From Panopea generosa (taxonomy: Eukaryota > Mollusca > Bivalvia > Adapedonta > Hiatellidae), in assembly GCA_029582155.1 (NCBI GenBank), contig CM055894.1, positions 32,269,707-32,333,706 of the forward strand: a stretch of 64,000 bases of DNA, in the 5' to 3' direction. The position numbers and the translations under genes are program-made. The notes beneath the pieces were generated by a model that was not told the DNA's origin, searched no databases, and was given only the letters and a program-made list of their open reading frames with translations. This document shows positions 15,601 to 18,600 of this stretch, one piece after another. Every line of letters starts with the position of its first letter. The stretch's first letter is position 1.

Positions 15601-18600
15601 CAAAGATACTCATTCCCTATACAATGAAGTAATACTTTATGGAGCTGAACTCAAATAATGTGTTGGTGTTATGAAGCTGTGCTATTAACAATCTTATAGA
15701 TTATAGATAACTTGTTATTTACTTTCAAACAATAATATCATCAAAGGGATAGTCAGACGTTTAATGTAGGCATAAACATTATCAAAATCCTATCCTGTCC
15801 GTTGCTTGTCATAAGCCCTAGCGTAAGTGTTGGCTTGGCGATTAGTTGCCGACAAAGGATATCACAAATATTCTGCCATATAAAACACAACAGTTACTTT
15901 ATATCAGTGCTATAGAAACGATTTCTAGCTTACAAAGAACTTCCTTTTTCAGCGAAAACGAATTGAATTCGTCAGTTTATATCAAATACTAAAGCAAAAC
16001 TTTATAAACAACCAAACATTTGTTTTGATTAATATAGCAAACTAATATGCATATTGCATTAATCGAACATTTCTATATTTACATGTGGATAATGGAGAGA
16101 AATACGAAACTTAGCTTACATAATAACTATCATGGATGTAACGATACGATTTAGCCGTTTATGCAAACCAAATAGTGTAATAATATGTTATATAATTTTA
16201 CCGCATTACCATTAATAGCATATTGGTATTTCCCAGTCGCTACTGTCCAAATTGCGACAGACTGACACATTTTAAGAATGTCTAAACTATTAACGATACG
16301 ACTTAACTGTTCAATATACTGTTCAATATACTGTCATTGGGTCGATTTATGAAACACACACACAATAAATACTAGTCAAATCTAATGTCTACACTATATG
16401 CAAACTACGTTCTAGGTGTATCTGGTTGTATACTAAACAAATCAGGAATTGCCGTCCTGGTACTTTCTATAGTGTTCATACTCATGATGATCTTTCTGCT
16501 GATATGGATGTTTCGGAAAAATCAAGATTCCCGTGGTAAGCAAATTAATATTATTCATATACTCATGTACTTTACGTTATCTTACATGCCTTGTATTACC
16601 ATGATTGTGTATGTTTTTCTTAAAGTCACGAATATCGGAACTATCAGTGTTTACGTACATGTAATAAGGTAATCAACTATTCGAAACATCTGCATTTTAT
16701 ATTATGAAGCAGTAATTTTATCTACACAAACAATATTCAAAATCTGAGATATGCTATAAATTTCAAGCCTAGTATGCATTATTTTAAGATACATGTATTG
16801 TGGTTACAGATTGGACAAATGTGTTTTATTTTCCATTCTAAAATTTAAAAATATGATATAAAACTTGTGACGAATTGAATAATTCCGTTCGTTGTTTAGT
16901 CTAAATCAGGTGTAAATATTGTCAGTCAAATCAATTCCGTTTAAGAAACTGCTTCGAAATAACATATTCACATGTTTCTTCCGAAGTAACAGTGACATAG
17001 CTAGGGAATAGCTATAACAAACTAGACGAAGAGAATAGAATACTAAATATGGTCTTTGAATAGATGTCAGACACACACTGCTTAAAGTCCTTGGAATCAT
17101 ATATCCCAGACCTAGTTTCGCATATTATAATCCACGTCTTCCGTCATACCCAGATTATTTAGTATTATTTTCCTTTTCTGTTCCGTGTTGATTTTAGAAT
17201 AACAAACTTATCATAAAGTGGTGTATGAATCAATACTTTATAGGTCATATACTGATATAGTAGTTGATAATTGAAAATATTTCTCCATGGATTTGTAAAA
17301 TATTGTATGACTAACACTATATCGTACACAGATCATACTTGGTTATGTATCATTGGTGTAGCGGTAGTTGCTGTTATAATTGATGTAACTGTACTGGTAG
17401 TTGCCGCCTACATTCTCAACTGGTGCTCCAGTTGTATAAAAGAATGCATAGCAGGTAATGCATAGTATATATTTCTTATGCTCATGACAAACATAAGGTT
17501 ATATATTCTTATAACGTACTATATCAAGATATTAAATGTAGATATTGCAGTATCTAAGTACATTGAATAATACATTAATCATGCGCTATGAGTTGCAATA
17601 TTAATATTCTGTATCATTCTGAAAGAAATAAAAATTAGTCTAATGCTATTTTAATCTGGAAACCTAAGGCTAATTTACTTACATGTACTGGGTTATTTTT
17701 ATTTTGTCTAACTTTACGGAACATGTATCACTTATCTGAATAAACTCGATTAGTGTCATTTAAGTATTTGATTGTGTTATTCACAAAGGCTATTACGTTG
17801 GAAGAATTCAAAGAGTAAATGCGCTCACCATAGTGTTCTCAGTTTTTTAATGTACACAGTTTTAAACATACCATATAAAACAGTCATTTTTAACTCTTTT
17901 CATATGAAAGTTTAATATATTGTGTTATTTATACACTAATTTAAAAACCACTGGCACAGATTTACGGCGTATGACCTTCAAACTGTGAAGAATTCTGAAG
18001 AAAAGAGACCAACATAGTCTAGTTTTGTAATTCATGTATAGTGAGAATGGTAAACAATGATATTCATAATTCAGTATATGTATTGAGCAGATAGATGCAG
18101 TGATACATGGAGAGAAGTCATGTTGATAGTTTGCGGTTGTATCCTTGGCATTCTCTATTTAGTTATAATTATTATAACTATCATTTGCTGCTGCAAATGG
18201 TCAGGTAATATAATATTATTATATTCTTCAATTTATCCTTCTAGAAAAACAGCAACACTTATTTGTAAATCAGCTTATGTAAGAAATAGTACTATTTTAT
18301 AGAGGTGCATGTATCGCTTCAAAAAGTATGTTTTGTTCCTAACTATCAATGTTTATGTTATATATACTGTCACAATTACAAATTAATATGATTTATTTGT
18401 AAAACAAATAATAATAAATAGAAAAATAAAAAAGTGACATAAAATATGAGTACATTGTATAATAAAATAAGTATCATGTTATACCAAAACAATGATTGTA
18501 CATGCATAATGCTACTATTAAAAATGTTGTTCTTGCGGTTTTAGTACACTTATGTGGATGTTATTTATAAGAAGTTAAACTATAAATTGCTGTATAACTG

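What the first reader, a model, noticed from the sequence alone, without database searches (positions are those of the whole stretch)
16416..18204. Three consecutive, frame-neutral membrane-span exons, one with an Asp in the span
Exons of 120, 123 and 114 nt, all phase 1-1, each encode one hydrophobic span. Exon 1 is uncharged, exon 2 has Asp mid-membrane plus a Cys cluster, exon 3 ends in CCC. If used alternatively, one ectodomain could be displayed with a neutral, an adaptor-binding (charged) or an acylated anchor. If used together, the protein has three passes and a Cys-rich outer loop. In vertebrate paired receptors, charged spans recruit signalling adaptors.
Basis: partly seen in the sequence, partly recalled or inferred. 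Interest (0 to 1): 0.85.

Follow-up and report, generated by a model that had tools for sequence, protein, structure and literature searches.

The report
Ig receptor with three-exon, three-span anchor
A mollusc gene for an antibody-like cell-surface protein carries three successive membrane-crossing exons that recur in order in related genes and look built to be used together as one three-pass anchor, much like the tissue-compatibility receptor "fester" of colonial sea squirts.

Summary
They belong to a plus-strand Ig-superfamily gene in a mollusc genome. In that genome the ordered set TM1-TM2-TM3 is intact at 6 of the 11 loci found, and 11 of 11 have the same cysteine-rich ectodomain exon upstream. 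The Asp of span 2 is kept in 9 of 9 copies.

Flanking charges alternate. The C side is more positive than the N side for TM1 in 8 of 8 and for TM3 in 8 of 9; TM2 is reversed in 7 of 9, though not in the window's own copy. That fits serial use as one three-pass protein with a Cys-rich outer loop better than interchangeable neutral, charged and acylated anchors. CCC is not conserved. Neighbouring paralogue B has a different, single terminal span.

Closest known: Botryllus fester (Ig, sushi, three spans on three exons, short tail, passages). No sushi is detected here, so it is fester-like, not a fester. No RNA evidence was available; alternative splicing remains open.

The parts
6387..6689 (+). 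Ig (V/I-type) exon, 303 nt, phase 1-1
   Evidence: open with AG/GT ends; Pfam Ig_3 6.5e-6 for the joined protein, below the curated cut-off here, above it in paralogue B; 77% nt identity to B
12921..13030 (+). first half of a second, Cys-rich ectodomain (d2a), phase 1-0
   Evidence: open, AG/GT, weak donor -0.5; relatives in B, C and at 50.39 Mb
13789..13927 (+). second half of the Cys-rich ectodomain (d2b), phase 0-1
   Evidence: open, AG/GT; 31 places on contig C1 incl. own and B
16416..16535 (+). TM1 exon, uncharged span, basic C-flank FRKNQDSR, phase 1-1
   Evidence: TM1 copies at 8 loci incl. own, plus a diverged one at 15.69 Mb
17332..17454 (+). TM2 exon, span with Asp, then WCxxCxxxC, phase 1-1; 45 nt shorter than the 168-nt form predicted at five relatives
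18091..18204 (+). TM3 exon, RCSDTWRE then span then CCCKWS, phase 1-1
19259..19304 (+). candidate short cytoplasmic exon (GKPQPKRPDSGPTSV), phase 1-2; reads into a stop if not spliced
   Evidence: same length and splice sites at the 1.13 Mb locus, L038; not found at the other loci read
54366..54668 (-). paralogue B: Ig exon
51069..51178 (-). paralogue B: d2a exon
50153..50294 (-). paralogue B: d2b exon
46137..46309 (-). paralogue B: single terminal membrane-span exon with stop codon, not recognisably related to TM1-3
   Evidence: no TM1-3 homologue seen in B

Best explanation
TM1, TM2 and TM3 are three serial exons of one membrane module of a mollusc Ig-superfamily receptor subfamily. Spliced together they give: Ig domain and Cys-rich domain outside; span 1 (out to in); a basic cytoplasmic loop; span 2 (in to out) carrying a buried, conserved Asp; a short outer loop with about four cysteines (WCxxCxxxC ... 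D[RK]CSDTW); span 3 (out to in); and a short tail. The exon anatomy and its conservation are shown; serial splicing and topology are inferred. The likely working is that of a ligand-binding subunit without its own signalling motif: a disulphide-tied three-span anchor whose buried Asp pairs with another span, inside the module or in a partner chain, to pass the signal on. That last step is inference.
For: Ordered TM1-TM2-TM3, phase 1-1, at 6 of 11 loci. A d2b exon upstream on the same strand, 2.5 to about 24 kb away, at 11 of 11. Charge of C-flank minus N-flank: TM1 > 0 in 8 of 8, TM2 < 0 in 7 of 9 (window 0, 15.69 Mb +2), TM3 > 0 in 8 of 9 (51.51 Mb -1). Joined TM1-2 loop more basic than TM2-3 loop in 6 of 6 full loci; outer-loop cysteines 4, 4, 4, 5, 4, 3. 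Asp, Tyr and both Cys of CxxC in TM2 in 9 of 9. pN < pS in 30 of 36 TM2 pairs and 27 of 28 TM3 pairs. A known protein, Botryllus fester, has three predicted spans on three successive exons, and its first span exon is in all variants sequenced (passages).
Against: No transcript was seen; every splice site is predicted. The window's own TM2 lacks the basic N-flank (charge difference 0), so its orientation rests on relatives. TM1 shows weak constraint: median dN/dS 0.87, pN < pS in 14 of 21 pairs (A against C alone 0.48). All copies come from one genome and are related, so the counts are not independent. Five of 11 loci are incomplete: TM3 with a stop at 2.95 Mb; no TM2 and no in-frame TM1 acceptor found at 51.51 Mb; TM3 alone at 2.006 Mb; no TM1 found at 2.395 Mb; no TM3 found at 15.69 Mb. 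Locus C's Ig exon has an in-frame stop. No convincing signal-peptide exon was found.
Confidence: 0.65

Rival explanations
1. Alternative anchors: the three exons are cassettes, used one at a time, so that one ectodomain is shown on a neutral, an Asp-bearing or a Cys-rich span.
For: All three exons are frame-neutral, phase 1-1, in the window and at the complete copies. In Botryllus fester 6 of 11 exons are reported as alternatively spliced (passages). In the window's own TM2 the flank charges do not oppose a lone type I span.
Against: TM2's charges are reversed for a lone type I span in 7 of 9 copies, with an N-flank of +3 to +5 in six of them. CCC is in 1 of 8 aligned TM3 copies. Introns of about 640-800 nt give no steric reason for exclusive use. 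In fester, splicing seen by PCR is not matched by bulk sequencing, and most of it is between the spans and the Ig/sushi part (passages).
Confidence: 0.2
2. Mixed use: the three-pass form is standard and a TM1-only or TM3-only single-pass form is made by skipping two exons.
For: TM1 (8 of 8) and TM3 (8 of 9) have out-to-in charge bias and the frame allows it. The related paralogue B shows a single span behind this ectodomain type.
Against: No direct evidence; the conserved Cys in the TM3 N-flank would be left without its partners in the TM2 loop.
Confidence: 0.1
3. Decaying or chance exons: a pseudogene or unrelated open stretches in AT-rich introns.
For: Weak TM1 acceptor; TM1 median dN/dS 0.87; some relatives carry stops or miss exons.
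Against: 0.2 such exons per resampled window (cut-offs not blind); an ordered set at 6 of 11 loci with splice sites and phases kept; purifying bias in TM2 and TM3; Asp 9 of 9.
Confidence: 0.05

Closest known systems
Botryllus schlosseri fester / fester family (FF) allorecognition receptors
   Same: Type I protein with Ig ectodomain, then three transmembrane domains, exons 8-10 encoding the three predicted spans, then a short tail without known signalling domain; multigene family; related single-span co-receptors encoded next to it (passages of PMC12065747 and PMC3549757).
   Different: Fester has a sushi domain; none is detected here. The host is a mollusc, not a tunicate. The co-receptors have long tails with tyrosine motifs; neighbour B has a short tail. 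Polymorphism and HECT ligase linkage were not examined. Sequence homology could not be tested (no fester sequence on hand).
CD47 (IgV domain plus five-span membrane region; recalled)
   Same: An Ig V-like domain on a multi-pass anchor.
   Different: Three span exons instead of five spans. No CD47 family appears among the Pfam hits (E up to 1), which scanned an Ig-to-TM1 join and a TM1-2-3 join.
Vertebrate paired receptors with charged spans (KIR, LILR, SIRP; recalled)
   Same: Ig ectodomain; charged residue inside a span; a neighbouring related gene with a different membrane part.
   Different: The charge is acidic and sits in the second of three span exons; no ITIM or ITAM tail was found on either gene of the window, as far as their tails are known.

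Membership tests
Immunoglobulin superfamily | Ig domain by profile | tested here: met
   Paralogue B: Ig_3 7.3e-8, V-set 3.8e-7, I-set 3.2e-6, over cut-off; window gene: Ig_3 6.5e-6, I-set 1.3e-4, V-set 2.8e-4, each below cut-off
Fester family (FF) | three transmembrane domains on three successive exons | tested here: met
   three successive span exons, by prediction only; fester definition passages
Fester family (FF) | sushi (SCR) domain | tested here: not met
   second domain of 4 paralogues gives no sushi match in Pfam up to E 5 (only weak others, best Meg 6.6e-4 in 2 of 4) and 0 PDB matches
Fester family (FF) | signal sequence | tested here: inconclusive
   simple scan of window 1-6400 gave one weak candidate in the wrong phase
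Fester family (FF) | short tail without signalling motif | tested here: inconclusive
   one 46-nt tail exon seen; whether it ends the gene is not known
Fester family (FF) | sequence homology to fester; alternative splicing; fuhc linkage | not testable with these tools
   no fester sequence, RNA or population data on hand; the 2025 FF/FcoR paper is not held
CD47 | five-span membrane region | tested here: not met
   three span exons only; no CD47 Pfam hit
Adaptor-recruiting paired receptors | charged residue in a span | tested here: met
   Asp in TM2 in 9 of 9 copies
Adaptor-recruiting paired receptors | a sister receptor with ITIM tail | tested here: inconclusive
   paralogue B ends KIIRSRIRNHDY*, no ITIM; the other family members' tails were not examined

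The most novel reading that the evidence does not exclude
Molluscs possess a fester-like receptor system: a family of Ig receptors with a conserved three-span module and buried Asp that work with single-span paralogues (such as convergent neighbour B) as partner chains in self/non-self or pathogen recognition. It evolved in parallel with, or from a common ancestor of, the tunicate allorecognition receptors.
Probability: 0.15. Interest if true: 0.85.

Novelty: new variant of a known kind. Interest (0 to 1): 0.58.

Why it matters
Ig receptors are as a rule single-span (recalled). Of 5.39 million held papers, the only one that holds the three terms "three transmembrane domains", "immunoglobulin superfamily" and "invertebrate" is the Botryllus fester review (listing). 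The same layout in a mollusc, in a multicopy family, would show that three-span Ig receptors are not a tunicate peculiarity. It would also give an independent system in which to ask what three spans and a buried acidic residue do for signalling.

Tried and rejected
Rejected: TM1, TM2 and TM3 as recent duplicates of each other (the best match, 125 nt at 61%, E 9.5e-5, lies in intron sequence after TM2 and TM3). Rejected: an equivalent of TM1-3 in paralogue B. Rejected: the organism as a tunicate (one myosin exon, closest to molluscan myosins; the species of those PDB entries are recalled). Led nowhere: ITIM-like motif scan of the downstream region (dozens of unconvincing hits in open stretches); tblastn for further tail exons between relatives (noisy, much of it intron homology); PDB and Pfam search of the second domain; paper searches on bivalve Ig families and alternative transmembrane exons (listings); TACATGTA over-representation as a mollusc sign (50 seen, 40 expected, not telling). 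Failed scripts: (index error, redone) and the tblastn part (wrong option, redone). Not answered: genome searches with the Ig exon and with B's span exon, so the number of single-span relatives is unknown.

Full report
What is there. The window is G000:C1:32269707-32333706 of a 1.47-Gb genome in 39 contigs. One myosin-head exon of that genome (of 67 matches listed, one was read) matches best the myosins of 3i5f (167.5 bits), 1dfk/1dfl/1b7t/1kk7/1qvi (158.7) and 2ec6/2os8 (153), ahead of 3jbh (134.7) and Myosin-7 (126.2). I recall the first eight as squid and scallop entries, so the organism is very probably a mollusc; this rests on one exon.

The three exons exist as described. With 6387-6689 (Ig exon), 12921-13030 and 13789-13927 (a second, cysteine-rich domain) they form a plus-strand gene, here A. 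The six exons join in frame: phases 1-1, 1-0, 0-1, then 1-1 three times. No convincing signal-peptide exon was found, so the gene's start is open.

A convergent paralogue B lies on the minus strand: Ig 54366-54668, second domain 51069-51178 and 50153-50294, and a single terminal span exon 46137-46309 with its stop codon. A and B align at 77% around the Ig exon and 71% around the second domain. No counterpart of TM1-3 was seen in B. So one ectodomain type is attached to two quite different membrane parts in one window.

Chance. Exon-like phase 1-1 ORFs with a strong span and passable splice sites: 3 distinct on the plus strand (6 rows), 0 on the minus strand, against 4 in 20 Markov-resampled windows. 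The cut-offs were chosen with the exons known.

Relatives. About 108 kb downstream on the same strand lies locus C with Ig (39% identity), both halves of the second domain (50% and 42%), and TM1 (44%), TM2 (53%) and TM3 (72%) in order. C's Ig exon holds one in-frame stop. Genome searches gave 9 places for TM2, 9 for TM3 and 6 for TM1 with C's version as query (A's and the 3.73-Mb copy were not in that list and were seen by tblastn). All lie on contig C1. Together they define 11 loci.

Complete ordered sets: A, C, 1.13, 3.73, 15.39 and 50.39 Mb (6 of 11). Incomplete: 2.95 Mb (TM3 with a stop); 2.395 Mb (TM2, with TM3 17 kb on; no TM1 seen in 9 kb); 51.51 Mb (TM1 without an in-frame acceptor, TM3, no TM2 in 6.9 kb); 2.006 Mb (TM3 only, 301 bases read); 15.69 Mb (TM2 and a diverged TM1; 3.1 kb read). 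The second-domain exon d2b has 31 places on C1. Of the 11 span loci, 11 have one upstream on the same strand, 2.5 to about 24 kb from the span exons. The other 20 places, B among them, have no TM1-3 hit.

Conservation. Copies aligned by codon: TM1 7, TM2 9, TM3 8 (the 51.51-Mb copies, the diverged 15.69-Mb TM1 and the 2.95-Mb TM3 with its stop were left out). TM2's Asp is GAT in 9 of 9. pN < pS in 14 of 21 (TM1), 30 of 36 (TM2) and 27 of 28 (TM3) pairs, with median dN/dS 0.87, 0.62 and 0.37. Between A and C alone dN/dS was 0.48, 0.20 and 0.27, and 0.55 for the Ig exon. TM1 is thus weakly constrained in sequence. The terminal CCC is seen only in A (1 of 8); the first of its cysteines is in 8 of 8. 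A's tail exon 19259-19304 has a 46-nt counterpart with matching splice sites at 1.13 Mb; both would meet a stop directly if unspliced, so whether it is the last exon is open, and it was not found at the other loci read.

Together or alternatively. TM2 is predicted as a 168-nt exon at five relatives, with an extra N-terminal part that is basic (for example RVAVTWRYLTSFKGLTWLRVTIR at 1.13 Mb). Charge of C-flank minus N-flank: TM1 positive in 8 of 8; TM2 negative in 7 of 9 (A 0, 15.69 Mb +2); TM3 positive in 8 of 9 (51.51 Mb -1). By the positive-inside rule (established knowledge) TM1 and TM3 run out-to-in and TM2 in-to-out. That is the pattern of a serial three-span protein with its N terminus outside. 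In the 6 full sets the TM1-2 loop is more basic than the TM2-3 loop in 6 of 6, and the TM2-3 loop holds 4, 4, 4, 5, 4 and 3 cysteines (junction residues left out). For A itself the joined loops read +2 and 0, but its TM2 alone is neutral, so A's orientation leans on its relatives. The copies are related, so these counts are not independent trials.

Mechanism. Shown: exon anatomy, conservation, order and charge pattern. Inferred: serial splicing, topology, disulphides in the outer loop, Asp pairing with another span, signalling through a partner. B and its like are candidates for a partner, but nothing here tests that.

Compared with what is known. [quoted passage not shown] The newer review says that the PCR-based splicing is not matched by bulk sequencing (passages). 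The present gene matches in membrane layout and exon layout; no sushi domain is detected. It is therefore fester-like in build and not filed as a member. Against an allorecognition role in bivalves, a 2026 paper reports no sign of allorecognition between mussel haemocytes (passages of PMC12956514); whether the window's species is a bivalve is not known. A search of held papers for three transmembrane domains plus immunoglobulin superfamily plus invertebrate returned only the fester review (listing). In a search with mollusc terms, 0 of the 15 papers listed (of 3,833 found) hold the phrase three transmembrane domains (listing). Absence from these listings does not show absence from print.

Verdict. 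Observation confirmed.

Noticed in passing
46137-54668 (minus strand): Convergent paralogue B of the same ectodomain type with one terminal span exon (KIIRSRIRNHDY*) in place of the three-span module; a membrane-part swap between close relatives.
   Followed up: partly
L024:4082-5367 (about 118082-119367 in window numbering): Between the ectodomain and TM1 of locus C lie Thr/Ser/Pro-rich tandem-repeat ORFs (TTVTTTSKPPSTTQGNHKNSTIP units), a possible mucin-like stalk; none was seen in the same stretch of A.
   Followed up: no
L025:1353-1655 and L038: A 305-base stretch near C's TM2 is 94% identical to one downstream of the 1.13-Mb copy, far above the other matches between the two (64-73%); probably a recent mobile element.
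   Followed up: no
G000:C1, 28-55 Mb and 85-99 Mb: Many of the Ig-domain matches of this genome fall, by eye, in two stretches of one contig (146 matches genome-wide, a lower bound).
   Followed up: no
7047-7802 and 57606-57932: The same minisatellite lies downstream of A's Ig exon and upstream of B's Ig exon.
   Followed up: no
9349-11189: Direct repeat of about 370 bases, about five units, inside the intron before the second domain.
   Followed up: no
59553-62376: Large minisatellite with offsets in multiples of 55 bases.
   Followed up: no
4768-5356; L024:390-1325: Broken transposase-like ORFs in the window and a long one (312 aa) in the flank, mariner-like by eye; no profile search was made.
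   Followed up: no
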